Source: Branchiostoma floridae (lineage: Eukaryota; Chordata; Leptocardii; Amphioxiformes; Branchiostomatidae). Taken from it: DNA of 64,000 bases. The stretch lies in the NCBI RefSeq assembly GCF_000003815.2, contig NC_049992.1, positions 8,927,671-8,991,670 on the forward strand, written 5' to 3'. Numbering within the stretch: the stretch's first letter is position 1; every line of letters starts with the position of its first letter. A program made the position numbers and the translations under genes. This document shows, piece after piece, positions 10,501 to 61,700 of this stretch. Below the pieces are notes generated by a model. The model was given only the letters and a program-made list of their open reading frames with translations. It did not search any database and was not told the DNA's origin.

Positions 10501-13500
10501 CACACATGAGACAGCTAAGAAAGTAAGAGTTGGTGTTTCATTTTGCCTTCATTCTGCACCCCCCAGACGACACACAGGCACCATCCATGAGATTGTCCCA
10601 TCCTCCTGCCTGGCGGAGTTTCCCGGCCCGGCCAGAATGGCCAAGCTGGTGTGTGAGGATGTCTCTGTGGAGAGATTCCACCCTGTCCTCTTTCCTAAGG
10701 TAAGGAAAACAATATATTTCATCACAACATTTCATCTTGACTTGAAAGTGCCTTTTTGATACAGATTTAAATGCAGCTTAATGTTCCTAGCTGATAGTCA
10801 TGATATACTGTAAATGCAGTCATGTTTGCCGGGATTTAATTTTGTGGTAGCTGGGATATGGAGTGTTTGCGGAGGTTTTAAGTTTTCGGAAGTGTGGTCT
10901 CATACTGTAATTGGAAAATGTGTGCAGTGGTTTTAAGTTTACAGTGAAGTAGCCACCATGAAAACCACATACATTAAACCACTACAAATATTTCTGTATT
11001 TAAAGTAGAATTTAAGGTAGAATCAAGTAAAATGATATGAAAGAAAGACTCCATACATGTATACTGATCATCGGAATTTCTCTTCCTCATCCCACCTAGG
11101 GTTCGGAACTGCTAGTGACGTACGACGAGCATGTCCTGACCAATCAGTACAAGTTTGGGGTGGTGTACCAGAAGTTTGGGCAGGTGAAAGAGGAGGACAT
11201 GTTCTGCAACAGGCAGGAGAGCCCGGCCTTCCAGGAGTTCCTGGGCCTCCTAGGGGAGCAGGTGGAACTGCAGGACTTCGAGGGTTACCGGGGAGGACTG
11301 GACACGCAGCATGGCCAGACCGGCAAGACTTCTGTGTACACCAAGTTCAAGGACAGGTGAGTTGTCTTATTTATCTTTATCACATGCTGTTGGAAACAAT
11401 AGCCACTGATGGTTTCTTAGCAAAGCGATGATTGAAATGATAGTATTTTTCTGAAATAGTTGTCTATCAAAGTCTCTCGACATCCCAAAGTTATGTCAGC
11501 CATATTGTAATATGTAATATAAAGCAGGTACAGAACTTGGAGGACTTCTAACAGTGATACTTTGAAGTGGTTCTTTATCTTGAAAAATAAGGTTAACTTT
11601 ATAAAATAAGTGCTTCTTTTTCTGTTTCCTGTTGATATGCCTTCATACATGACAATTTAATAATAAAAAATGCAGCCTCTATAACAACAGATGAAGCTGT
11701 TTGCGAATTTGTACTCTTAGAAACTTGAAAAAGAAAAGGCAACATCATTCTTAGAAACTTGAAAAAGAAAAGGCAACATCATTCTTAGAAACTTGAAAAA
11801 GAAAAGGCAACATCATTCTTATAAACTTGAAAAAGAAAAGGTAACATCATTCTTAGAAACTTGAAAAAGAAAAGGCAACATCATGTCATCTCATGATTCC
11901 ATCTTGTTGTCCCACAGGGAGGTTATGTTCCATGTGTCCACCAAGCTGCCCTACACGGAGGGGGACAGCCAGCAGCTGCAGAGGAAGAGACACATCGGGA
12001 ACGACATTGTCTGTATCATCTTCCAGGAGGAGAACACGCCGTTCACCCCGGACATGATCGCCTCACACTTCCTCCACGCCTTCATCGTGGTTCAGCCTCT
12101 CAACGCCTGCTCAGAGAACACACATTACAAGGTACTGTAAATTCTCTTACTTCTGCGATGTTTTTTTTTTTTTAAATTTCGTGGTAAGGGGGTTCTGCAT
12201 TGTCACTGTTTTGAATTTGAGGTTGAAGCAATTCTGTTTTACAATAGTAATACATTGGAAAATAATGCATTTATGCAATGTCATGTATTTATGGTGAAAA
12301 GGTCACAGAGAAAAAAAATGTGCTCAACATGAAATACAATTACTGTATAACTTTCAAAATTTACAGTATGGCACAGTTGCACCTTAGGGCCCAGTCACTT
12401 TGGTCATATTATAATACAAGTTTATTGCAAATTCTTGCCCGTTTTCTAATTGCAGGAAACATACAAGGTTCAAATAGTGTAAAATACAATATCACAAGTG
12501 TCTACTCTACATGTAGTCTCAAAATAAAGTCTCAAAGTCTAAAACTAGTAAAAGCTAACTCTAGATCCTGGGTTATTGGGTTCGACTCCTTTTTTGAAGA
12601 CAGTATAATAGATTTATGACAATGATTCATCCATCTTGTGATGGAAAATGTTGCCAATTAGAGTCTTGTCAACAGTTGTTCTATCATAGTCAAGATACTT
12701 TTAGAAAATGCCACAAACTATGCTGTGTCTGACTTTATATAATAGTTACAGCACCCACGGGGACATGTTATATAAGTGTGTTTTTATCCTAAGGTTCTGA
12801 AAATCGTGAGCTGCAGCATCATTAATTTCGTAATGGAGTAGAGCAAACCTTTTTACATAAGCCATGGGGCTCTACTTAAAAGTCAGACTGCCCTTATGTT
12901 ACTTCTATATCAGCTGTAGCATTTAATGCCACCAAAGTCTTGCCACTGCACACATAAAGGTTAAAAGCAGTCATTATCAATATTGAGATGAAACATGTCA
13001 TGCTTTGTCACGACTTGCATTTTTGGCCAAGCACACAAGATTACCCCCACCATTATCGATAAGTGTGTTGGGTCTTTTACGTGCAGAGATTCGGTGCTTG
13101 AAGCTAAAGGTTACACTGGGCTGCAGGCTTTGCATCCTCTGAAATGACAAATGGCGAATAAAACATAATTTTCTTGATGAAGGAAATAACAATATCCATT
13201 GTGTATAATGTTATAGGTCTCTGTAGCAGCACGTGATGATGTACCGTTCTTCGGGCCGACCCTCCCGAATCCCGCAGTCTTCAGGAAGGGACCGGCCTTC
13301 CGCGAGTTCCTCCTCAGTAAACTCATCAATGCAGAGATCGCATCTTACAAGGCTGAGAGATTCGCAAGGCTGGAGGTGGGTCTTTCTTTGGTGGCAAATT
13401 TTAATGATATGGAGAAGATAGTTATAAATATAGTCTGACTTCACAAAGGGAATGATAAGAAATTGTACTGTCAAAAGATGTGTAACCAAACTGAACCATA

Positions 13501-23475: not shown

Positions 23476-26800
<3,325 letters not shown>

Positions 26801-27800: not shown

Positions 27801-29564
27801 TTACACTCTTCCAGTGTGTGTCTGCATGTGATTCTTCAGACTACCCAGCTGACTGAATCGCTTGCTGCACTCCACACACTGGTAGGGTTTTTCCCCTGTG
27901 TGAGTTCGCATGTGAATCTTCAGAGTATTCAGAATAGTGAACTGCTTGCTGCATTCCTCACACTTGAATGGCTTCTCTCCGGTGTGAGTTCGCATGTGTT
28001 TCTTCAGATCACCCTGGTTCGTGAACTGCTTGGTGCACTCTTCACACTTGTAGGGCTTCTCCCCAGTGTGGGTCCGCATGTGAGTTTTCAGACTACAGTA
28101 GTGACTGAACTGCTTGCTGCACTCCTCACACTTAAAGGGTTTCTCCCCTGTGTGACTTCGCAAGTGGCTCTTTAAACTACCACAGTTAGTGAACTGCTTG
28201 CTACACTCCTCACACTGGAATGGTTTCTCCCCGGTGTGAGTTCGCATGTGAATCTTCAGATAACCCAGGGTAGTGAACTGCTTGCTACATTCTTCACACT
28301 TGTAGGGTTTCTCCCCTGTGTGAGTTTGCAAGTGTCTCTTTAAACCACCACAGCTAGTGAACTGCTTGCTGCACTCCTCACACTGGAATGGTCTCTCCCC
28401 GGTGTGAGTTTGCATGTGCATCTTCAGTCTACCCAGGGTAGTGAACTGCTTGCTACACTCCTCACACTTGTAGGGTTTCTCCCCTGTGTGAGTTCTCAAG
28501 TGAGTTCTCCAGTGCCCGGGGTCACTGAACTGCTTGCTACATTCCTCACATCTGTAGGGTTTCTCCCCAGTGTGAGTTCGCATGTGAATCCTCAGACCTC
28601 CCTTGGCAGTGAACTGCTTGCTGCACTCCTCACACATGTAGGGTTTTTCACCAGTGTGTGTCCGCATGTGTTTCTTCAGATTACCCTGGTCAGTAAACTG
28701 CTTGCTGCATTCCTCACACTTGTAGGGCTTCTCTCCAGTGTGAGTCCGCATGTGAGTCTTCAGATCACTTATCTGACTGAACTGCTTGCTGCACTCCTTG
28801 CATATGTACGGTTTCTCTCCTGTGTGAGTTCGCATGTGGATCTTAAGATTGCCCTTCTGACTGAACTGTTTATTGCACTCCTCACACCTGTAGGGTTTCT
28901 CACCGGTGTGAGTCATCAGGTGTCTTTTCAAATCACCCTGCTGACGGTATTGCTTGCTGCACTCCTCACACCTGTAGGGTTTCTCCCCTGTGTGAGTGCG
29001 CATGTGTGCCTCCAGATGATGCGACCTACTGAACTTCTTGGTACACTTCTCACACCTGTAAGGCTTCTCTCCAGTGTGAGTTTTCATGTGCTGCTTTAGA
29101 CTAGACATATGTCTGAACTGCTTGCTGCACTCCTCACAAATGTAGGGTTTTTCACCAGTGTGTGTCCGCATGTGTTTCTTCAGATTACCCTGGTCAGTAA
29201 ACTGCTTGCTGCATTCCTCACAATTGTATGGCTTCTCTCCAGTGTGTGTCCGCATGTGTTTCTTCAGAACATCTGTCGTAGTAAACTGCATGTTGCACTC
29301 CTCACAGTTGTAGGGTTTCTCACCGGTGTGAGTCCGAATGTGAGTCTTCAAACTGCCCAGCTGACTGAACTGTCTGCTACACTCCTCACATCGGTAAGGT
29401 TTCTCGCCTGTGTGAGTCCGGATGTGAATCTTCAGACTACTCAGGCAACTGAACTGCTTGCTGCACTCCTCACATTTGTAGTGTTTTGCAGTCACAATTG
29501 TGGCAGCAAACTCTCCTTCCAAACTGTTTTCAATGACATCAGAGCTGATTCCACTAGTTGCCAT
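27801..29564 (-). CDS. Poly-C2H2 zinc-finger protein, 20 fingers
   Basis: Predicted sequence-specific DNA-binding protein in the nucleus. A single coding exon encodes 587 residues: a 28-residue N-terminus (MATSGISSDVIENSLEGEF...) with no KRAB, BTB or SCAN domain, then 20 consecutive C2H2 fingers of 28 residues (consensus CEECSKQF-x5-L-x2-H-x3-H) joined by TGEKP linkers, with TGERP once between fingers 13 and 14. All 20 fingers keep both Cys and both His. I chose the ATG at 29564 because an acceptor TTTACAG ends at 29576; the open frame extends further only into that intron. Fingers 4 and 10 share DQGNLKK, and fingers 13-14 and 15-16 repeat as a pair, so the array grew by internal duplication. 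Minus-strand AATAAA at 26814-26819 is a candidate poly(A) signal. Target unknown. Confidence 0.95.
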   Translation of the reverse strand: MATSGISSDVIENSLEGEFAATIVTAKHYKCEECSKQFSCLSSLKIHIRTHTGEKPYRCEECSRQFSQLGSLKTHIRTHTGEKPYNCEECNMQFTTTDVLKKHMRTHTGEKPYNCEECSKQFTDQGNLKKHMRTHTGEKPYICEECSKQFRHMSSLKQHMKTHTGEKPYRCEKCTKKFSRSHHLEAHMRTHTGEKPYRCEECSKQYRQQGDLKRHLMTHTGEKPYRCEECNKQFSQKGNLKIHMRTHTGEKPYICKECSKQFSQISDLKTHMRTHTGEKPYKCEECSKQFTDQGNLKKHMRTHTGEKPYMCEECSKQFTAKGGLRIHMRTHTGEKPYRCEECSKQFSDPGHWRTHLRTHTGEKPYKCEECSKQFTTLGRLKMHMQTHTGERPFQCEECSKQFTSCGGLKRHLQTHTGEKPYKCEECSKQFTTLGYLKIHMRTHTGEKPFQCEECSKQFTNCGSLKSHLRSHTGEKPFKCEECSKQFSHYCSLKTHMRTHTGEKPYKCEECTKQFTNQGDLKKHMRTHTGEKPFKCEECSKQFTILNTLKIHMRTHTGEKPYQCVECSKRFSQLGSLKNHMQTHTGRV

Positions 29565-30635
29565 GATGACTAAATCTGTAAAGATAAAAGTAACCAATTA
29601 TTTTTCTACCCCCTTTATCATGAGAGACTCATGCCAGCTTAAAACACAATGAAGTTACAAAGTAAATGACAAGGTTGCAGTTGTAGTAACTGGTAAACAT
29701 AAACAGTGTTATGGGTGTTCTATTAGAGATCACCCGCAGGTTGTAACAGTAAAGTAAACACACAGAAAACGTCCTTATTTTCACAAATATAAACCGTTAT
29801 CTGGGTAGCATAGTTTTGCTGCCATTTTGTTTGAAACATGTGACATTTAACGAAGCTGCTGGCGTCATCATTGGTGACCTTGTATATTACAACACTTGTT
29901 TACAGCGGTATCAATTACTCCATGCCCCTATCAGTGCGACTCAACATACGGTCAAACATGAAGTCTGAAGAATCATTGTTCGTTGGGAGATTGGCAGATG
30001 TCTAGGACTTTATGACTAGGACAACTTCTTGTTTGTAGCAGGGGTAAAAAAAAACTTCCTGGAAATTATGCCATGCAAAAAAAGTATTACAAGTTACATG
30101 TAGTTAATTAGTCTTCTTCAGTAGTAAGAGTAAGACCCTCCTTTTTTAGGACCATCTCATATTCACTTCAAGGAGGCTAGGTCCTCCTTCTTCACCCCCT
30201 AAATTACTTTACACCAGAATGGTTATACGAATTTCAATTTCCGAAAAACAATCGTGTCGCCGTAACGCCAGCTTTTTTCAACAGCACTTGTTTCCCTGGG
30301 TCTATTCACAAAGGCATGCTGGAGGAGATGATGGAAACCCCCCCTATGGAAACCAGATGTGGGGGCGCGGAAAACTCTTGCTAGAAAATTCCGGTTCGAG
30401 ACATTTTGCCCCCAGGAGGCCCTGGGCTCGCTTGGTTTAAAAAATAATTTTAATACAATCGGACTAGAGTACATTATGTTTACCTAACATTATGTTTAGA
30501 TGTAAGGTTTTTGTGATGGCCAGTCTTCAAGACGGTACCAAAAATTCAAGGAGAACCACAAACTTCCCAAGTCATGATCATTCGATCACGCCGCGCGTTC
30601 TTTGATAAAGGAAATCAGATGCTTTTCGTACTTAC

Positions 30636-46700: not shown

Positions 46701-49700
46701 GAGTCACCTTCATTGTGGACTAAGAAGGGATAGCATACACACAATCATGATGAACATGCATTGGAAAAAACATGACTAGAATTTTTCCACACATAGTTAG
46801 CCTTACACATACTCTTAGTCAGTTTTCAAAACTAAACTAAAGGGAAAAGATTTCCATCATCTGTTATTATTCTGAAAGGTACCCTGGGTGCCAGACCAGA
46901 CCGGGCAGCCAGCCAGTTTATTCTGCGGCCCAAGGCAGTCTGCTCACCGATCTAATATTTACGCTCCGGAGAGATAAGCCTGAATACCCCCCCTCACATT
47001 AGGCGAAAATCGATCGGACGACGAGTCTGCAAGCTCTGAATTACGAGGAGGCATGACCCTGAGGGAAGGGGGGAACTCTGCCATTTCTTCGTCGGCATCA
47101 GGGTCATGCCTCCTCATAGTTTATAGCTCGCAGACTCGTCGTCCAATCGATTTTCGCCTAATGTGAGGGGGGTAGAAGGAGTCTTTGCTGTCCTTTCCCA
47201 GCAAAACTCCGTTGGGCTAAATCTCCCCAGAGCAATAAGCTAGATCATTGGACTGCATTGTGCCGCCGAAGAAACCGCCTGCTGTCCCTCGGTATTGTCT
47301 GATTCTAGGGTATCTGAAAGGGTGAGATATTCTTATCACGATTGTCCCAGATGATGAAGTGCAAGACTGACATGTCTGGTAAAGTCCACCACTGTGACTG
47401 TCTCCTGGTTGGTTGGTGCTGCCCCATCCTCTTCATCTTCCTCCTCCTCCTCACGTTGGACCACCCTGATGTCCTTCATCTCAATGTCTCCATCACCTGA
47501 AATACATGTAAAAAGTCTGAGTAAGTAGTCATTTCTAAAAATCTTTATATTCATTTATTGATCTCAAGGGCAGCCCAAACAGCTGAAGCCAATCATAGCT
47601 AACTAGATATTTGTAATTTCCAACGCAGCCTTACAGTTTTAGGAAAATAATAAAAAGAATCACCAAACATTAAATCGAGATATAAAGAAATGGGTTAATT
47701 CAAACAAAGACATAAAATCATTTCTTATTCCTACACTCAAAATCTGTGTAAAGATGTAAAGAAGTATGTAAACCTATGTTTAGAACCCCTTAGGTTTATG
47801 ATGATAGTTCTATCACACCTGCTGCATTGAATCGCACTGATGGATGGTTGGTATGTGCCATCACCAGGCGTCTTCTGGCGTTACTTAGGTGGTCTTCCAT
47901 GATGTCCTCCAGCTCCCATCGTTTAACAGAACCCAGCAGAATCATGGACTCTGGGAACAAGAGTGGGAAATATCAGTTGACAGTTGAAACAAGACTACTA
48001 GTAGGTCAATTAATTCTGGTAGAATCTGGGAGGATGAGGATTAAGTAGTCCAGTGGTTATGTATTTGATTTAAAAATTGACAACCCTGCCTTTGGACCTG
48101 AGGTGGGGAGTTCGAATCCCAGTTATTCTTGCTGTGGTCCACTGTTTACATAGCCTGAGTACCATCCTATGATATAATGTAGTGACTGCTGACTAACCAT
48201 GATTAGCACGAGAAGGATTGAGCCAGCGGTCTGCACAGAGGATAGTGCTCTGGCTACTGTTCATAATACTTGTTGACAAGAGCTAGAGGAATTTCCTTGG
48301 TTCAATGAACCTGTACATTATATATTCTGTACACAGGAAGGTGAAAGATTTGTTTTTCATGTCATTAGTGATCTTAACTGGTTCGAAGATCCTTTGCCTC
48401 CCTGTCTCTTAGATTTTTATATTTTAGATGTACATAGCAGGCATGTACCTGGCGTATCCCTGTCTAGTAATCAGCTAACAAAAGGGTATATCATCCCCAT
48501 AAGGGGTGGTATAACTCCGTTTTATGTAAACATGTCATACAATGATAATGATGATGACAGACATGTACAAAATGTATANNNNNNNNNNNNNNNNNNNNNN
48601 NNNNNNNNNNNNNNNNNNNNNNNNNNNNNNNNNNNNNNNNNNNNNNNNNNNNNNNNNNNNNNNNNNNNNNNNNNNNNNTAAAAGGACTTTTCGCGGTGGA
48701 TTTAAGTTTGCGGTACAACAGAATTCTCAGTCTGCTCCTTCAGATTTCAGATATTAGCACCTTCGCTACATAACACTTAGCTACTATGTTAGTCCCAGAG
48801 CTTTTGAAACGTAACAATTTCAAAAGCGTGTTAAAGTTGCAAAAAGACCATGGCAGTTTATCTGATCCAATTTTGTTTTTACATTTATTTTATAGTTATT
48901 TTCTGAAGTTTAATTCGCAAAAACTGGTGTGACTTTTGTGAGTTTCTGTGAACTGTACTTCAGACATGATAAAGGCTGACTAGTAGTATGATAGAGGGTA
49001 CACTGTCTAAAAATGCAAGTGTGCTAGAATTTTCTTCTTATCTTAGATTCCTAAAACTACAAAAGGAATATCTTGCCACAAAAAGTCAAACCATCACTAC
49101 AAACATGCAAAAGACAAACGAAAGACACCACACAAATGAAGAACACAAAAAATCATGAGAGAAACCAACATCCCCAAAGTCCTTATAAATGTAACAGAAA
49201 GTTGAGATTTAAGGTTAGTATGATGAGGCACACAGGGTGTTACCACATCAAGCATGCCGACTTTACCACCAGCTAGAGTGCCCCAGTTTGCGCTTCAGAT
49301 AACGTTTCCACTGTCTGTCGGGTGAAACCAACATCATTTCACCACAGGGAATGTTAGTTTGTAATAGTCAAAACTAGCGACACACCAGTCAAACGATAAG
49401 ACATTAAACTAATCCTAAACCATCAATATAACACTTCTACAATATTTCTCAACATCTGGTTAGATATTATGGTCTACATGTATATCAAACTACTAGTACC
49501 TGTTGGTACCAAGAGTTGATGTCATACATATTTGTGTACCTGTTGCCATAGTAACAAACATGTGACAATCAACAATATTGGTCAGTTATATGATGAGCAG
49601 CAAAGCACAGCACAGCAGTTAGAAACAGGTTACACTCAAACTCTACTTCCATTGCCTTTTCAAACACACACAAAATCTCAGCTACCACTTCAAGTTTCTG

Positions 49701-52700
49701 CCCACTATAATTTTGGAAGAATTTTTATTACATGTATGCTGTCAAAGTGAAAGAATAATGATACTGACTTCAGAGCGGGAACAATTCTTTCAAATACTTC
49801 AGAGTAGTGTTGATTCTAATTTACATGTCTCGTATATATCCTAGAACTGATCAAAACAGTACACTTATAAGTTAATTTATTATCAGATCAAATTGTGACA
49901 ATAAAAGAACTTGTCATGAAATCAGAATCTGAAATGCCATGAATTTCACGGTATGGAACAGCATTATGACAAATTTCATTTTATTCTATTTTATTTAGCC
50001 AGGTACAGAAAAATCAGGTCACTTTGACCAGTTATTTATGTAGATTTGGGATTTGAATAACATTCTTTCATTACATTGACTAACAGCCTTTTGTAAAAAT
50101 CAAAACTTTGAACAAAACCGAAAGATTCTGCTTGGTTATGTTATCACTCCATCCCTCTCTAGTGTGTGTTTGTGAAGGCCCTGGACATGAGGTTCCTAAC
50201 GCAGTAGACTTACCACCCTTGTACCCTTGTTACCACAGGTTAAGATGGAGCCAGACGGACAGGAGAGATAGTGAAGATGGGTGAGAAGAACAGTCATTGG
50301 TCAGTCATATCAATACATGGATTGGCTTAATCTCCAGGCAGATTTACCAGTGGCATAAGATAGTATCAACGCTGGCTAAGAAGTACAGCTGGCCAAAGGG
50401 AGTCATCAGCCACTGGGTAGCCAAACACACTCCTAGGCCAGCTTCACTCCTTTGCAGCTTTTGATATTATCTTATGCTACCGCAGGATCTGCTTGGAGAT
50501 TAGAATTGGCAGTCAATATGAGATGTACATGCTTGGCACATTCATTCACATGCATGGTAGATATATCGATGAATTGCATTGTTACAAATAGCAGTGCCCC
50601 CTGTCAGATTCCACATGAACTCCAGCATGACTATGTTTGAAGACTTCCAATGAGCCACAAAAGCATTGACAAAGCTGCTTTTAAACATGCTATCCCACCA
50701 CCACCAGCAAGCAGCATGATGACTGGGTCCTGGTGAAAGCAGTCATTAAAGTTGTGTCCAAACATTTAAATCATACAATATACACAAATACTCTCATACA
50801 TTCTAGAATCATGACACATCAGCTGAACATGCACTTAATTTTCAAATACGTAAAGATGTCTGAAAATCAGGTTTCTAGTATTATGTGTCTTGTTGTCAGG
50901 TTAACAGAAAAAAATTTATATCACAACCAATAGTCACCCAATAGATGCAAGTACATTAATCATGTCATCATACATTATGTTCTTCCCTCTTCATGACAGA
51001 ACTAAACTTGTTACCACCCCAATGCAGAAATATTCCATGCAAGACAGCTGTCATTCAGTCTACAAATCATTGTGAGTGACATCTTGAGTACCAACTAAAC
51101 TCCCTAGTTTTAAACATAACTCCAACATACCTCCCAGATCCGCCACTGCCGATGTCAGGTAGGTATGGAAGTCTCTTGATCTGTATGATGCTGTCGTAGA
51201 TGGACGGTTGGAGCCACTGCGAGATCACGTTAGCCACGAGGACGGCTATGAGGACGGGCAGGATGTGCGCTATCTGTCCCGTCAGCTCAAACACGATAAC
51301 GGACGTGGAAACGGTGTGGGTTACCGCTCCTGATAACGCTGCAGCACCTAAAATGTGATGAGAAGTTACAATATTTGTATGTCATAAAACAACTTGTTGC
51401 CATTCTCTTTTCTTGTAAAAAAAAAAGTAAATAAAGAAAGATACAAATGTAGCATCTTTGTGCAAAACAACATATTGCAAGCACCCTGGAAAAATGTGAA
51501 CATCATTTGAACTTACAAGATAACATATTCTCAGAAAAATAAATCCCTTCATCCAGGGTATGAAAAATAGTTATCATCATCATAATGACAGCCTTTCATT
51601 CTTCATCGGAGCTATCATGAACACATGTTAAAACATTGTGACTTGAGAAACCCTAAAAGCTAGGCACAGTATACAAAATGGACATATGTAGGAGGCACTA
51701 CTTCCAATTCCATTTCCTTTCAATCCATGCATATTGCTGGAAAAGAGTTATTACCTCCATGAAATGGAGGTATTGTAGTGATAACTGCCATTTGTTTGTC
51801 CCGACAATGTCTGTCAGCACGATAACTAGGATGGATGGGTTGTTTTGATATATGGCATGTGGGTAAGTCTCTACATGACCTTGCCAAGGATTGGTTAATG
51901 GGAAGAAAACCTGATCCATTTCACCCACCTGCTACAGCATACCCCCCTGGGATGATCCTGTGGGGGATCCCATCTGACCTGACCCCCAGGGGAAACCAGG
52001 CAGCCATACTCTCGCCCACCAGTCGCCCAAACGCAGCACCTACAATCATTATGTAACATTAAACAGGTTTGCAACACTGACCTCTCGCTGTAGAAATATT
52101 ATCAAACATTGTAAATACAATGCTTTTAAACAGTAATTTTACACAGAATTTGAACATTCTTCAATTGGAATACTCTGCATGAGTTCAATAAATAACATAG
52201 CCTGGATTTCAGCTGTGTTAGCTTTCAGTCAATGATGTTTAAATGGTAACGGCTCCCTTGTTGGTGGGGTAGCCATTGTCAGGAGCAGACCCAAGCTAAC
52301 AAGACTGGACTCCAGGCTTTGAATAATAGGCATGTTGGTCACAATGTACTCACCAAGTACAAACACAGGAATGAAGACCCCGGCTGGAACAGGTAACGTC
52401 ACCGCCATAGCTGACATCCAGAACTGCAAGGAAAGACGTTTGTTGCTATAGTTCATTTCTAAATGTTTACCCCTTTTGTCAGCTTTGATTTCCAACCAAT
52501 AACCCTAGACAGTACTGTGAAAGAACAAACTTTTGTTTGGAGTAGCATACTTCAGTAATATATCATTTTCCTCCAGTTGACATCATTTCTTGTGGCAGGA
52601 CACTTCTGCTCAATCCTAGAGGTAACGATGGATAGTGTCACACAACTATGGAATGGGATTTGTAGCTGTTTCAACGAAGTACATGTATGTACACAGCATA

Positions 52701-55700
52701 CTGTGTTTGAGGAGAGCCCCAATATTAACCCCACTTATCACTATCAGCTGTTACTGTACGTATGGGTCTATCCTGGTATGACTGGACCAAACCTACTAGT
52801 CTGGTTTTATGCAGCTTGTACTTACTGTGCAAAACCAGTGTGTGACCTCCTTGGCAGTTTACTAGTTCACTAGTTATGCAACAAACAAACAAACAAACAT
52901 CTAAGCTCACATTCATGACTATAAAGATGACGAGTGTGACAAATATGTTGGACTGTGGATGTTTCCAGTGACTGATGATGAGTTCCTCGTCCACGTCAGC
53001 CTGACCCTTGGTCCACGTGTGGTTGTCAAACAGCTCGTTTATTGCTTCTTTCTGGGTCAGCTGCGAGGAAAAGTACAAAAAGTTCTTAGACTGAAGATTT
53101 CAATGGGATCATCAAGACTTAATTTTAAAAACTCATGTGAAAAATATTAAACTACTATAAAACAAAAACTTAAGATGTTTCAGCTTAACCAATTTCTAAC
53201 CCTTAAAGATTAATGTTTAATGTACAGATATATATCAGTTTTTGAAAAGTCTTCACCATGTATTGATGATACTGCTAATACAATGTGTGTCTCACTTGTA
53301 GGATTACTGTACTACAGAATTGTTACAATCACAAATTCAAAAACACCACAAATAGCTCCTTTTCCCTACTACTCCAAAATAAAACCACTGTGAAAGGAGA
53401 GAAATATTATGTTTTGGAGAGAAAAATTAAGTTTTGAACATTATGACAATACAAAACGGCCTAGTAAACTGATGAAGTAACGATGGACACTAGCTGGTGC
53501 ATTACGTCAAAGGGCAGTTATACCAGCTACATAGATACAGATACAGATGAGGAAGTTGGATACTGACCTCCCCAGCCATGTACTGATAAACATAAAGCCT
53601 ACAGTGTTAGGTGAATATAAAGTTATAACTATAACAGTCTAACTAAACATCATGACTGTACAAAATGGCCTGATAAACTGATGAAGAAGTTGGATACTGA
53701 CCTCCCCAGCCATGTACTGCCCCAGGCCCAGGGGGAAGGTGAGAGATGAGACCACAAAGGCGATAATGGCGGGATAGATGAACCGGCTACATGATGGAAC
53801 AAAAGGCACATCAACAACTTTCACACATTTACATTTGGATGAGTAAAAACAGTCATTTTGAAACTTTGTTGTTCTAAAATAGTATACAGTTACGTTATGA
53901 AGGCATTACAGTGAAAATACATCACATCAATGTTATCGTGAGGTATGAAATTTGATATCTGGTCAAACGTGGTCACAGTATACACTATAATATCAGTGAG
54001 TACAATGTTGAAGTTGTATGTGTACAACAGCTAACATACTTTGTGCATCTATTGTAAGTCCTATTTTCAGCTGGAAATTTTTCATCGTATCTTCTAACAC
54101 CTGCTCTTCTGAGGATATCAGTGACAGTCATTTGGATTGACAATGTACAAGTAGTTTTAACTACATATCAAAATATGCTAAGTGTGAATACAGAAACAAT
54201 AGTTGATCCAGAAGGAAACCTACATTGTACATGTATGATACATGACCTACAAAGCTAACATACAGGTTGTACATGTAGTCAAGAATTGTTGGGGCTTACT
54301 GAAATATGTGATGACACTACAGATTATAACTGTTGTATTATGGTGAAAAAATCTTAAAACAGTAACTTAATTCTAGGTCTATGATTATTTTGTGATAAGC
54401 ATTTGTTATTATTGTGAAAATCAGGAATTTTTGAGGAGCAAATTAAGAAGAGATATTAGTTGCCAGACAGAGAGAGTACATGTAGGTAACATATTTGGCT
54501 TACCTGGCCCTTTTCATACACCAGGCATGCAAGAAGTAGAAGAGAGTTGAATGAAGACAGACTGTGTGAGTTTCGTTTTGTGTTTAAAACAGTGTATTCA
54601 TGCATGTTATACAAACTATAGAAAGAATTATTGTTGATAAAAATAATGCAAACCTGAGGATGAGATACTTAAGTATGTGTGTAGTAAGAAATGAGTTGAA
54701 TTAGTGGAATAAACAAAAAAATAATGGTTGGCTGTGAAAAATAAGATAAAACAAGTCTAGAAAAGAATTACTGTAATATATGAGTCAGAATAAATGTTTG
54801 TGTGTATCAGTTATGAAATATTACCTTAAAAATTTTATATTACTTAAATTAATATATAGTACATGAAAAGAGATCGCAGAGGCATGACATATTGCATCAA
54901 TAATTTTCTGATTTTCCTTCGATCTGACAGCTACCATACATGTAAGTTGACCTGATTTTGTAATATCCATTGTGCTAAATGTCTTCTGTAATCATATTTG
55001 TTTTATATTTTTCATAAAACTTGACTGTTTTGTTCTTACTTTTTCTGTAGGAAGTAAGTTAGTCTCCTGTGCTTCCTGTTGAAGTATACAACTTGTCTGT
55101 GGAAGTACACAAAAAGAGCCCCTCCAAAGCCACACACAATCCTGGGGGAAAGAAAGACATGTTAATCAATGGTGTAAATGACTAAGCAATTTTACTTATT
55201 TACAATATACAAAATGTACATATTGGTTACCACTTACTGTTGTAGTACAGTACAAGCCGCTTAATTGCATGGCCTATTTGCCAGTGAATTTCGTGCAATT
55301 ATGCAAAATCCGGCTGGTGCAATAATGCAAAGTTATCCAGCTGTACCGTACCGGTTTGGGATTTGGGGTTTCTGTGCAGTTAACAGAAGTGTGCGTTAAT
55401 CCGCTGTGCAATTACCTGGCTTCTACTGTATTGGTTTTCTGTATTCTACTGAGTAGTAGACAAAACCATGAAGAAGAGGCAGAAAGTATATTTCCCATGA
55501 ATCATGAAAAAGAGCAACAAGGACTGTTTTATGGGCTTCAATGCTTGTTCTTACAACAACTCCACCTACCCTATGACTGCAAAGGCCAACAGCTCCTGTA
55601 CATCAAAGGGGTAGTCTACTCTGAACTGGGTCTTGAACAGGGCAGTGATGGTTTCTGTACAGTTCCAAAAGAAAAGAAAAGATTATCAAAATCATTTTCA

Positions 55701-58700
55701 AATCACAGTAAACATTCTTACAATTTTGTTGCAGCACTATGAGTTGAGATTAAACTGATACCTACAAAGTACATTGTATACAGTATACATGTTTGAATTG
55801 TACTAAAAGGTATATTGTAATCAGGGCTATCTTCATCAGGTCCCATCCTTCCGCCATGGATCAGAAATTTGCTTGTTGGGACGGAAAATAATCTTATCCC
55901 ATTCTTCCCAAAAATAAACTGTTGAAAATGTACTTTTATAAGGTTAAAATTACTTATTTAACCAGAACAATCTAAAACATGGTCTCCCAAAACAATGATG
56001 AGGACAGAAAAAAATTTGAGCTGGAGAGAGCCCTGATTATAATACTTGAATGTTATGGAGAAGAATCAAAAGCACACATCCTTAAAGCACACATCCTACC
56101 TTCCTCCCTGTTCCACACAGCCAGTAGTCTGAAGATGAAGGCACCACAAACAGCACTAAAGAACCCCCGCCAGTAGTTTCTCACAGCAAAGTATGTTGAT
56201 GTTACCTCTATACTGAATAACACACCTGGAAACGATCAGAGAAAAAGACAATGAAGTATTAAATCTTGCTGTGTAATAAGCTATTCACAGTGGATACAAA
56301 ACTTGGCATTACTGGGAGATTTTAATATATAAGACTAAATCTGTCTACCAATCAAAGCAAAAGTTCATCTTTTAATACCGTGGACCAAATAGCATAAATG
56401 ACAAATGCTATTTCAGGCTAAAAGATAAAACCACTTTCTGATAAAAAGGCAGTACATTTGTATGTTTCATTTTACATAGTTTCTCCATGTGGTATTGCTC
56501 TCATTTGCTTTGCTCTATACATTTTGTAGTCATGCACATTTTACTTTGTAAATATGTCCTCCTTACCCCCGATTGGTGCAGCAAAGTTACAGGAAACACC
56601 CACTGCACAGGCTGCTGCTAACATTTCACTGTTTCTGGATTCATTCTGCAACACAGGGAGCATACAACATTACACAGGGATAACGTTATAGTATTATATA
56701 TGGCTATGAACATACTGCTAGGTTAAAGAATAAACCTGGAAGTTCATTGTATTTAGTTATAACTGTGAAGAACTCAAAGTGGTTGCAACTTGAACTACTT
56801 ACCGATTCGAATTATAGTGGAAGCAAGATGCATTTCTTAAACTTGTACAAATGTTTAACACCTACATGACCTAAGAATAAAGCAAGGATTTTATAACTTG
56901 TATTCTAACTAAAAAAAGCAGGCTCTTACCTCATAGATACCCCTGAAAGACGTGACAAGTTTACTGAGAAGTTGGGCAACCATACTGGCTATGTGTACAA
57001 ATGGACCCTGCAATACAAACAACAGTGTTAAAAAGATGTTTTCAAATACTAACTTAGATAAACTATTTTCAAATAAAAACTTATTCCCAATGTGACACAC
57101 AGACATGTGAAAGTAATACACATAGTGCAATCAACTTTGTCTTCATGTATGTTCACCGTGGCAGCAGGTGCGTGTAAAAAAAGGTTAAACTTGGTAATTC
57201 ATTTGCTGTTGGTAATGATAAGTTCATGTTACAATTCTCAGCATGAAAAACCGTGAACATACAAAATATAAAAGTACTCTAGAAAATAAGGAAGTATTTC
57301 ATATCAAGTAAGGACCCACTTCCTTGCCGAGGGGAAGCCCGCTTCCCAAGGCGGTGATGAGTCCGATGATTTTTGCGATGAGAGTTCTAAACGACAGATA
57401 CTCCTTCAGCACCACTCCCCGCAGGATGGTCTTCATCTCAGGGATACCAGAACCTGGGTGGGGGGTGGTGGTGGGGTCAATACGGTCAGCAGGTTTCAAA
57501 CAACATTGCTTATACTAGACTTAGGCACATTCTAGACACAGTTTTTACCGATATCTGTGGATATGTCGGGAGGGATCTGGAACGTTGGCTGCGGGACACC
57601 CGTGGCGCTTGTAGTCATAAACAGCTATATAGCCTAATGAGCCTGCGTTATATGCTAATGAGCCCTCCCGAAGTCGGAACGCATCTACACACACGCTGAA
57701 GTTGTCGGGGACCCCTGCTAAGCTATCGTACGAATGGGCCGGACCTTTCGGGAGAAATTCTGCCAATATCTTTATGGCGATATTGCAGTTCCATCTAGAC
57801 GCTTAAAAAAGGCTGTCAGCAAGAGGTTGTCTGCTCGCAGATATCGGGAAAAACTGTGTCTAGATCATACCTAAGTACAGTAGAAGCCGTTTAATTGCCA
57901 GTGTGCTTTGTGCAAATATCCGAATGGTGCAACAAAGCAAAGTTATTAAGCTGGAATGCACCACCATGGGATTTCGCACCATTAACAGAAGTGTGCGATT
58001 ATCCATTGTGCAATTAACTGGCTTCTACTGTACAAGAAATAATCTTGCAATCTCACAGCAAAGTCATTTTTTGCATTCTTATATGACATGGACTTTTGAT
58101 TATTAAATTACATATTACAATTTCAGACAAAACAACAGCAACAAGGTGATTGACATTGTAACTGCAACTACTGTCGGTAGTAAATTTGTGGTACCAAGTA
58201 AGGATAACCATACTGCAATCAGCAAAAATTTTAGTTTTGCTTCTTTTGTGAAGTCACAAAAACTTTAAGCTTATCTGTATTTTTCAATGCAAAATGCAAC
58301 TGTATGACTGCACACCTCACGTGTGTGTCATCAATTTTATATAATGTGCAAGTTATACAGCCAGGGCTGCCTATCTAGCAAATGCATATTACAAAACACT
58401 AACCGAGGTGACACCTATAACTTACCTATAGCATTAGCAGACACAATATGGGTGAAACCAGCGGAAAAGGAGATGAAAATGACAGGAAACATCACCCAGG
58501 CCAGGTACTGTAGCAAGGGGTACTGGGACAGCTCCATGTATAACCAGTAGTGAGCTGAAACAACAATACAGCATCTACTGTAGCAAGGGGTACTGGGACA
58601 GCTCCATGTATAACCAGTAGTGAGCTGAAACAACAATACAACATCTACTGTAGCAAGGGGTACTGGGACAGCTCCATGTATAACCAGTAGTGAGCTGAAA

Positions 58701-61700
58701 CAACAATACAACATCTACTGTAGCAAGGGGTACTGGGACAGCTCCATGTATAACCAGTAGTGAGCTGAAACAACAATACAGCATCTACTGTAGCAAGGGG
58801 TACTGGGACAGCTCCATGTATAACCAGTAGTGAGCTGAAACAACAATACAACATCTACTGTAGCAAGGGGTACTGGGACAGCTCCATGTATAACCAGTAG
58901 TGAGCTGAAACAACAATACAGCATCTACTGTAGCAAGGGGTACTGGGACAGCTCCATGTATAACCAGTAGTGAGCTGAAACAACAATACAACATCTACTG
59001 TAGCAAGGGGTACTGGGACAGCTCCATGTATAACCAGTAGTGAGCTGAAACAACAATACAACATCTACTGTAGCAAGGGGTACTGGGACAGCTCCATGTA
59101 TAACCAGTAGTGAGCTGAAACAACAATACAACATCTACTGTAGCAAGGGGTACTGGGACAGCTCCATGTATAACCAGTAGTGAGCTGAAACAACAATACA
59201 ACATCTACTTTAGCAATGGGTACTGGGACAGCTCCATGTATAACCAGTAGTGAGCTGAAACAACAATACAACATCTACTGTAGCAAGGGGTACTGGGACA
59301 GCTCCATGTATAACCAGTAGTGAGCTGAAACAACACTACAACATCTACTGTAGCAAGGGGTACTGGGACAGCTCCATGTATAACCAGTAGTGAGCTGAAA
59401 TGATAATAACAAAAAACATCTTTTATACCCCTATACTGTCAAACAGCAGGAAAATGATTGGCTGACAAGTCTCTGAGCTCTGAGTGACATTTTTTGCTAG
59501 CAATGTGTCAGGAGCTATCTCAATCATTGCCAAGTATTTTGAGATCACCTGATACTTGCAAATCCCACAGACCCATCCAACATGACTTTCAGGTGAAAAA
59601 TGTGTTTGAATCTCTGGCATTTCACAATTACAGTCAAACCCCATTAACTGTGTGACCAGGGCTTTCATTGCATAATATGATATGCAACTGTTGACATCCA
59701 CACAATACAAGTTGTCACCACCTTTTGATCTATGTTGCACAATTCTATACAAAGTTCTATGTCAAGTAGTACAATGTATATAACATAAACTTAACATCAG
59801 ATGACTTAAAACAAGACTCAATTCTTAGGCGACTGCCGTTAAGATTTTGTAAGTTTCGCAAAACCTCAAGTTTACTGTGCTTTAGACAAAATAATTGCTA
59901 TAGTGTCGGCACAGATTCACAGTTCCTTCAAAGTGTCCTTGTTTAGAATAAGAAGGTTTGGATGTTACCTTTCTGGCACTTAGCGATGGTGAAGTCCACA
60001 GCAAAGCTGAGCAGGGCCATGGAGACCCCCAGGAGGAGCAGGAAGATCCAGTCTTCTCCGATCTTGGCAAACACAACATTTCTGCACCAGATCATGTATG
60101 CTGGGGAAGGCAAGGAGACACAGTTAGAAACTTCTAGACTTCTATTCATCAATTCTTCTTAATGTTCTTACATGTACTAAAATTGATTTCAGATGGGCCA
60201 GAAAGTAGGAGTACTCAAAATACATTGTAGTTTATTTCGTTTGTTGCAATCATAAGTGATGAATACAACCAATGCATATATTTTTCTACCTCAACATATT
60301 GAAGTATAATGTATGTGTAGGTCGACTAAATGTATTTTTAATCAGTGCAATCATGCCTCAACTCAAGTACATATAGCATCAACTCTATGGTTTTCCCTCT
60401 GCATGTGTATCTATAGCAGTACATGACCATTTTGGACCATAACCAGGCTTTTACAGAACATAAAAATCTACTGTTAGCAGAGTATATGTACAGCTTTTCA
60501 GAAGAAAGACAAGTTAAAATCATCTCCCTTTGACGGTGACATCATGGGTGAAATAAAGTGAAAAGTTCTTAATGACTTACCTGCTTCTTGCTTAAAATTT
60601 ATATAATAATACAATGTAGCACAGCTACAACCATAACGTGTTCTACACACATACACCAGAGTCCTATGAGCATATAGCTACATATAATTAGTCTATGACA
60701 CTAGTATGCATTTACATATTCAATACCTTGTCTCTGACTAAAGAAACAAGACATGCAGCCCATACTGATGGATGAAGAGCTACCTCCCAACAAAATCAAC
60801 ATAAAGAAGAAAATTTTGATGCTGTACAAGGTACATTGTACATATAGACTGATTGCCCAGAGACATGAAGAATAGAAACCTGATAATGTGTGGGGGATGT
60901 ATTTATAAGCGTGACATTTTGATAAATTTGATGACGACAATGGGGACACAACTTTGTAAAAGAAACATCAATAAATGTCACACCTAGACACAAGTTCAAA
61001 GATATGTGTGACAATGCCTTTTCTGAGTTGCCATTGTTGCTATTGTACACAGTCAAGAAGGAATCTGTCTACAAGATACAACACCTTGTGCCGACAGACA
61101 AATGCATAATAATGTCAATGCACATTGTATTGCTGAGGCATATGATATACATCTACATAGATAATACAACAGTGCATTTTGTATCACCTTTTAAGGTACC
61201 ATCCTGACCCGCATGAGGGGTGGGACTGTGGGTGAGTACCCTGTGTTGTATTCTTTTTGTCATATCCACTTAAGAAAACACACATTTCAATGCAACATGT
61301 CTGAAATTGAGACAGCCTGCTGTGCTCAAGAAGAATAGCTATCAACTCAAATGTCAGAATCCTGTATTCACATTTTGGACTGCTACATGCACAGTCAGGA
61401 AGTTACAATTAAATCATTTTATGGAAGCCTGTGGGATATAAGTAAAAGCCTGTAGGATTTCAGAATACCTGTAAGGGACGTTATTACGTCCCAGGCATGA
61501 CATAAAGTCACGCATATATACACTAACTACAGATGTATGGGGGGGGGGGTATAGAAGTTAAAGATTATACTACATCAGTAAGATTAGCAGGCATTATGCT
61601 AACTACATGTACATGCAAGCATTATTTATACCAATTTGTGTGGATGGGATAGGGTGCACTTACTACATGTACGATGTAGTGTCAGGGCTTAACAAGTTTC

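What the first reader, a model, noticed from the sequence alone, without database searches (positions are those of the whole stretch)
58505..59400. Thirteen-copy array of a 3' splice site plus exon start inside a chloride-channel gene
A 70-bp unit containing the acceptor TTTCAG and the first 46-47 nt of an essential transmembrane exon is tandemly repeated 13 times upstream of the real exon in the transcript. Twelve decoy acceptors precede the functional one. Splicing to any decoy would give 16 residues and then TAG, so decoy use predicts truncated channels or nonsense-mediated decay. It could be a polymorphic splicing modulator, or a neutral minisatellite seeded by an exon edge. Near-identity of units implies recent expansion or homogenisation.
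Basis: partly seen in the sequence, partly recalled or inferred. Interest (0 to 1): 0.85.

Follow-up and report, generated by a model that had tools for sequence, protein, structure and literature searches.

The report
Lancelet mirage minisatellite at splice acceptor
In a lancelet chloride-channel gene the start of one exon, with its splice signal, has been copied about 12 extra times into the preceding intron; it is a new example of a known lancelet oddity called a "mirage", probably harmless, and a neat natural test of how cells choose one of many identical splice sites.

Summary
Thirteen acceptors lie exactly 70 bp apart (first exon bases 58554 to 59394). Each unit holds 21 nt of intron end plus the first 49 nt of a ClC-2-like exon (58426-58554, minus strand). 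All 12 decoys read 16 residues and then TAG. The window lies in a 513-Mb genome with 19 large contigs. The published Branchiostoma floridae BflGb6 globin "mirage" was found again in the same assembly, so the source is very probably B. floridae. Tandem copies of intron-exon boundaries are a described amphioxus phenomenon (Adh3, troponin C, globins, PGBD5), reported not to disturb regular splicing. This is a new, unusually clean member of that kind. Best explanation: a near-neutral minisatellite seeded by a boundary-spanning duplication; the real acceptor wins by exon definition. Decoy 6 equals the real site for 226 nt upstream and 49 nt into the exon, so local sequence cannot decide. A splicing-modulator role is possible but unsupported here. 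Copy number rests on a Sanger assembly and is uncertain. There was no RNA evidence, no second haplotype and no sister species.

The parts
59969..60100 (-). Upstream ClC-2-like exon; donor AAG|GTAACA
   Evidence: flanks, frame; PDB match of the joined protein
58555..59968 (-). Intron, 1414 nt, whose 3' part is the array
58506..59400 (-). Tandem array, 70-bp unit = 21 nt intron end + first 49 nt of the exon
58624..59324 (-). Decoy acceptors 2 to 12 (first exon-like bases 58624, 58694, ... 59324)
   Evidence: no donor above 1.6 bits inside the array (matrix recalled)
59346..59420 (-). Outermost, diverged edge copy (decoy 13, first exon-like base 59394): same 49 exon nt, different and longer intron flank; probably the old intron end
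58426..58554 (-). Real exon, 129 nt, acceptor TTTCAG at 58555-58560, donor TAG|GTAAGT at 58420-58425
57320..57453 (-). Next exon, starts the GSGIP chloride-channel signature in frame
   Evidence: Voltage_CLC match of the joined protein and of this place in the genome search

Best explanation
A 'mirage': an amphioxus minisatellite made by tandem duplication of an intron-exon boundary. Shown: a segment of intron end plus 49 nt of exon is present as 12 near-identical 70-bp units plus one diverged edge copy upstream of an intact exon. Inferred: it began as one boundary-spanning tandem duplication and grew and was homogenised by unequal exchange or slippage, the edge copy escaping. Inferred: splicing normally uses the innermost acceptor, 58554, because it alone makes a short exon (129 nt) with the downstream donor (exon definition); decoys would make exons of 199 to 969 nt. 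Inferred: decoy transcripts that do arise end in TAG 149 to 919 nt before the next junction and are removed by nonsense-mediated decay. The array is then close to neutral.
For: Array anatomy and diverged edge copy. Same anatomy at the BflGb6 globin in the same assembly: 158-bp array across an exon start, 4 acceptors, 3 of 3 decoys ending in a stop. Published mirages with boundary repeats, edge units excluded from homogenisation, haplotype length differences, and regular splicing by RT-PCR (PMC3087553 passages; PMC3902484). Minisatellites are dense in this genome: 19 arrays of period 30 or more in 185,155 sampled bases, so some must cross exon edges by chance. Real acceptor and 10 decoys have the same acceptor score; decoy 6 is identical for 226 + 49 nt, leaving donor distance or sequence past exon position 49 as the difference.
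Against: No RNA evidence for this gene. Exon definition is not shown; a first-AG-after-branch-point model would predict the outermost decoy. A second AG in each unit scores above the array acceptors in my crude matrix (7.3 against 6.0 bits, 12 copies). The published RT-PCR would miss NMD-degraded products, and for BflGb6 the confirmed CDS was only partial. In human genes repeats at exon-intron boundaries can alter splicing (PMC2812944 passages). One duplication as the start is inferred from one assembly only.
Confidence: 0.8

Rival explanations
1. Length-dependent splicing modulator: decoys compete with the real acceptor, a share of transcripts uses them and is destroyed by NMD, and the number of units sets channel output per allele or cell.
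For: 12 of 12 decoys give a premature stop well before the next junction. Decoys are as strong locally as the real site. Boundary repeats alter splicing in some human paralogs (PMC2812944, passages), and a C. elegans minisatellite is enriched near alternative splicing regions (PMC4039745, abstract). Adh3 mirages vary even somatically.
Against: Other mirages are reported to leave regular splicing undisturbed. No conserved structure or donor in the unit. Chance overlap of dense minisatellites with exon edges suffices.
Confidence: 0.1
2. Assembly artefact: the true locus has one or very few units and the array was inflated.
For: The B. floridae assembly uses about tenfold Sanger reads with two divergent haplotypes merged (PMC7269912, section read); an 895-bp array is about as long as a Sanger read or longer (read length recalled). 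Different assemblies gave 2 or 7, and 3 or 6, copies at PGBD5 (PMC3902484); the BflGb6 mirage was misassembled in a draft.
Against: Units carry 4 sequence types and a diverged edge copy; no N run lies in the array. PGBD5 re-sequencing confirmed the original sequence. The existence of an array is likely real even if its length is not.
Confidence: 0.05
3. A row of small alternative exons, or an intron-gain intermediate in which repeat copies become exons.
For: PMC3087553 proposes mirages as a route to new introns.
Against: Best donor-like site in the array 1.6 bits against 10.5 for the real donor and 6.1 for the upstream one (matrix recalled); every decoy frame meets TAG.
Confidence: 0.02

Closest known systems
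Amphioxus mirages in globin genes BflGb6 and BflGb9 (PMC3087553, passages)
   Same: Tandem minisatellite whose unit spans an intron-exon boundary; BflGb6 repeats intron end plus exon start, as here; edge units escape homogenisation.
   Different: Units 150-160 bp and 157 bp, 6 and 3 units in two BflGb6 haplotypes; here 70 bp and 12 decoys, with near-identical units (81-100% identity in BflGb6). RT-PCR exists there, none here.
Adh3 mirages of B. floridae and B. lanceolatum (Canestro 2002, not held; known to me through PMC3087553 and PMC3902484)
   Same: Boundary-spanning minisatellites, units 10-72 bp as cited.
   Different: Length and somatic instability shown there, not testable here.
PGBD5 repeats of B. 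floridae (PMC3902484, section and passages)
   Same: 60-bp and 108-bp tandem repeats overlapping splice sites; copy number differs between assemblies.
   Different: Described as imperfect repeats at exon 3 and exon/intron 4; here near-perfect and at an acceptor only.
Internal tandem repeats at exon-intron boundaries of human paralogs (PMC2812944, passages)
   Same: Minisatellite variation at exon-intron boundaries.
   Different: Human segmental duplications, average 30-bp unit repeated 4 times; some create new introns or alternative splicing.

Membership tests
Amphioxus mirage minisatellite | Tandem repeat whose unit spans an exon-intron boundary | tested here: met
   21 nt intron + 49 nt exon per unit, 13 acceptors
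Amphioxus mirage minisatellite | Lies in a cephalochordate gene | tested here: met
Amphioxus mirage minisatellite | Authentic exon and frame intact beside the repeats | tested here: met
   Three exons join in frame through GSGIP; PDB and Pfam matches
Amphioxus mirage minisatellite | Inner units homogenised, edge unit excluded | tested here: met
   12 units 98.7% alike; edge copy shares 6 intron nt with the real site
Amphioxus mirage minisatellite | Length unstable between haplotypes, individuals or tissues | not testable with these tools
   One merged haplotype only
Amphioxus mirage minisatellite | Regular splicing not disturbed | not testable with these tools
   No RNA data
Tandem (alternative) exon array | Each copy has its own donor and an open frame | tested here: not met
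   No good donor in the unit; TAG in 12 of 12 decoys

The most novel reading that the evidence does not exclude
The array is an allele-length-dependent governor of channel output: decoy acceptors draw a fraction of transcripts into NMD, and copy-number change, possibly somatic, tunes the level of a ClC-2-like channel between individuals or cells.
Probability: 0.06. Interest if true: 0.7.

Novelty: new member of a known kind. Interest (0 to 1): 0.3.

Why it matters
One decoy equals the real acceptor over 226 nt upstream and 49 nt of exon, so the choice must rest on distance to the donor, or on sequence past exon position 49 or further upstream. That makes this array a natural test of exon definition against scanning in an animal gene, and its likely length alleles would show whether minisatellite length affects expression. 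As a novelty it is modest: the class has been described, with a first report dated 2002 in the reference lists seen.

Tried and rejected
RNA structure: 350 nt of the array on the gene strand fold no better than shuffles (z +1.46; 95 of 100 shuffles fold at least as well). No structure is claimed.

Independent small exons: rejected, no good donor in the unit.

Examined: 22 family-matched exon loci (9 globin; 13 CLC). 1 of 22 (L032) has an array crossing an edge of the matched segment; 2 of 22 (L030, L042) have short arrays near it that do not cross. The exon of this finding is not among the 22; L040 and L044 are other exons of the same gene, and the flank of L044 holds part of the array. Rough neutral estimate: 19 arrays of period 30 or more in 185,155 non-N bases of 20 sampled stretches, mean unit 89 bp, scale to about 52,700 genome-wide (many have only about 2 copies). 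With 28,192 genes and an assumed 8 introns per gene (no call), a random 89-bp unit would span an exon edge about 8% of the time, so chance alone could give thousands. Order of magnitude only.

Other arrays in the window: 34 bp x 5 at 11715-11884 stops 33 nt before a Rap_GAP exon, so it is not a boundary repeat; 84 bp x 20 is zinc-finger coding.

Pfam on five frames of the channel gene: 2 of 5 matched Voltage_CLC; 52232-52504, 53642-53905 and 47339-47554 matched nothing at E 0.001. The far part of the gene model is therefore not established.

One search was a mis-framed translation and was not used. Searches for a genome-wide mirage survey or a chloride-channel mirage listed none that I recognised as such from titles and abstract starts; two searches gave nothing used.

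Full report
Observation. On the minus strand the window holds a 1414-nt intron (58555-59968) of a ClC-2-like chloride-channel gene whose 3' part is a tandem array. TRF gives 58506-59400, period 70, 12.8 copies. A direct count gives 13 acceptors, first exon bases 58554 + 70k for k = 0 to 12, 12 of 12 spacings exactly 70. The 12 full units comprise four types (7, 3, 1, 1), mean pairwise identity 98.7%, minimum 95.7%. The outermost copy keeps the 49 exon nt but has a different, longer intron flank. Chance is excluded: a 218-nt exact run at lag 70 against at most 10 in 200 shuffles.

Gene. The exons 59969-60100, 58426-58554 and 57320-57453 join in frame through the GSGIP signature, each inner edge with AG and GT (that GSGIP is a chloride-channel signature is recalled). 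The first two together match Chloride channel protein 2 in the PDB (E 1.4e-22), and ClC-K and ClC-1 less well. The joined protein and the frame 51070-51381 match Pfam Voltage_CLC; three other frames that I took for exons of this gene did not. Searched with the 87-residue two-exon protein, the whole genome gave 14 matches, all at this locus: the two exons and 12 matches in the array region, each with at least one TAG.

Decoy consequence. For 12 of 12 decoys the frame gives 16 residues and then TAG. The stop lies 149 to 919 nt before the exon end, which by the usual 50-nt rule (recalled) is an NMD target. Only 58554 stays open.

Source. G000 has 513,431,437 bases in 431 contigs; C1-C19 are 17 to 35 Mb long. 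The chromosome-scale B. floridae assembly has 19 chromosomal scaffolds (PMC7269912, assembly section read). As a positive control, 9 globin matches were found; one, L032, has a 158-bp array across its start with four acceptors at spacings 154, 158 and 158, so three decoys, each running into a stop. PMC3087553 (passages) describes for BflGb6 a 150-160 bp repeat of intron end plus exon start, with 6 and 3 units in two haplotypes, and tryptophan at CD1 in BflGb6, 12 and 13; L032 reads QQKW there (placed by eye).

Known kind. Repeats of intron-exon boundaries in amphioxus are called mirages (PMC3087553, passages; PMC3902484, one section and passages; the original Adh3 paper is not held). They are reported for Adh3, troponin C, two globins and PGBD5, with further loci cited. 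According to these papers the mirages tested leave regular splicing undisturbed, lengths differ between haplotypes, Adh3 shows somatic instability, and edge units escape homogenisation. The present array meets the features that I could test; instability and splicing could not be tested. My searches of the held library listed no report of this locus.

How the real acceptor can win. The real site and decoy 6 are identical over 226 nt upstream and 49 nt of exon, decoy 4 over 156 and 49 nt. So acceptor strength, any branch point within that distance and the first 49 exon nt cannot decide. What differs is downstream: the rest of the exon and a strong donor (TAG|GTAAGT, 10.5 bits by a matrix recalled from memory) 129 nt away; decoys would need exons of 199 to 969 nt. 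Exon definition explains this; first-AG scanning from an upstream branch point would predict the outermost decoy, which scores 5.7 bits against 6.0 for the real site and 10 of the decoys. This step is inference, and NMD could hide some decoy use. Against a simple picture, a second AG per unit, one copy of it inside the real exon, scores above the array acceptors in the crude matrix (7.3 bits, 12 copies).

Why neutral is enough. Twenty 10-kb stretches (one from each of C1-C19 and one more from C14) hold 19 arrays of period 30 or more in 185,155 non-N bases. With an assumed eight introns per gene, many arrays should span exon edges by coincidence. In 22 family-matched exon loci 1 had an array crossing the match edge. 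RNA folding shows nothing unusual.

Against this reading, or open. Boundary repeats do change splicing in some human paralogs (PMC2812944, passages), and a C. elegans minisatellite is enriched near alternative splicing regions (PMC4039745, abstract). The published RT-PCR would not see NMD products well, and BflGb6 was confirmed only in part. Copy number rests on a Sanger assembly with merged haplotypes, and at PGBD5 it differed between assemblies. The splice matrices and the NMD rule are recalled. The genome survey is small.

Verdict. Its value is as a natural experiment on acceptor choice.

Noticed in passing
11715-11884: 34-bp x 5 array in an intron of a Rap_GAP-domain gene; it ends 33 nt before the next exon (11918), so it may touch the branch-point region without repeating the splice site.
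   Followed up: partly
27804-29597: Minus-strand frame of 598 residues with about 20 C2H2 zinc fingers, an 84-bp coding repeat.
   Followed up: partly
24866-25258: Minus-strand frame that reads like a histone H3 N-terminus ([19 protein letters not shown]...) and then departs from it; no Pfam match at E 0.001. Intron-bearing H3, or a fragment.
   Followed up: no
57875-58033: Probable small non-autonomous DNA transposon: 24-nt inverted ends (GTACAGTAGAAGCC...), 92% complementary, 111 nt between them, in the next intron of the same gene.
   Followed up: no
L032 954-1601: BflGb6-like globin mirage re-found: 158-bp unit, four acceptors; the number of decoys (3) equals the shorter published haplotype.
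   Followed up: partly
L011 441-4020: Two long arrays of a 43-bp unit (about 52 and 21 copies) in an arbitrarily placed 10-kb sample; minisatellites are dense in this genome.
   Followed up: no
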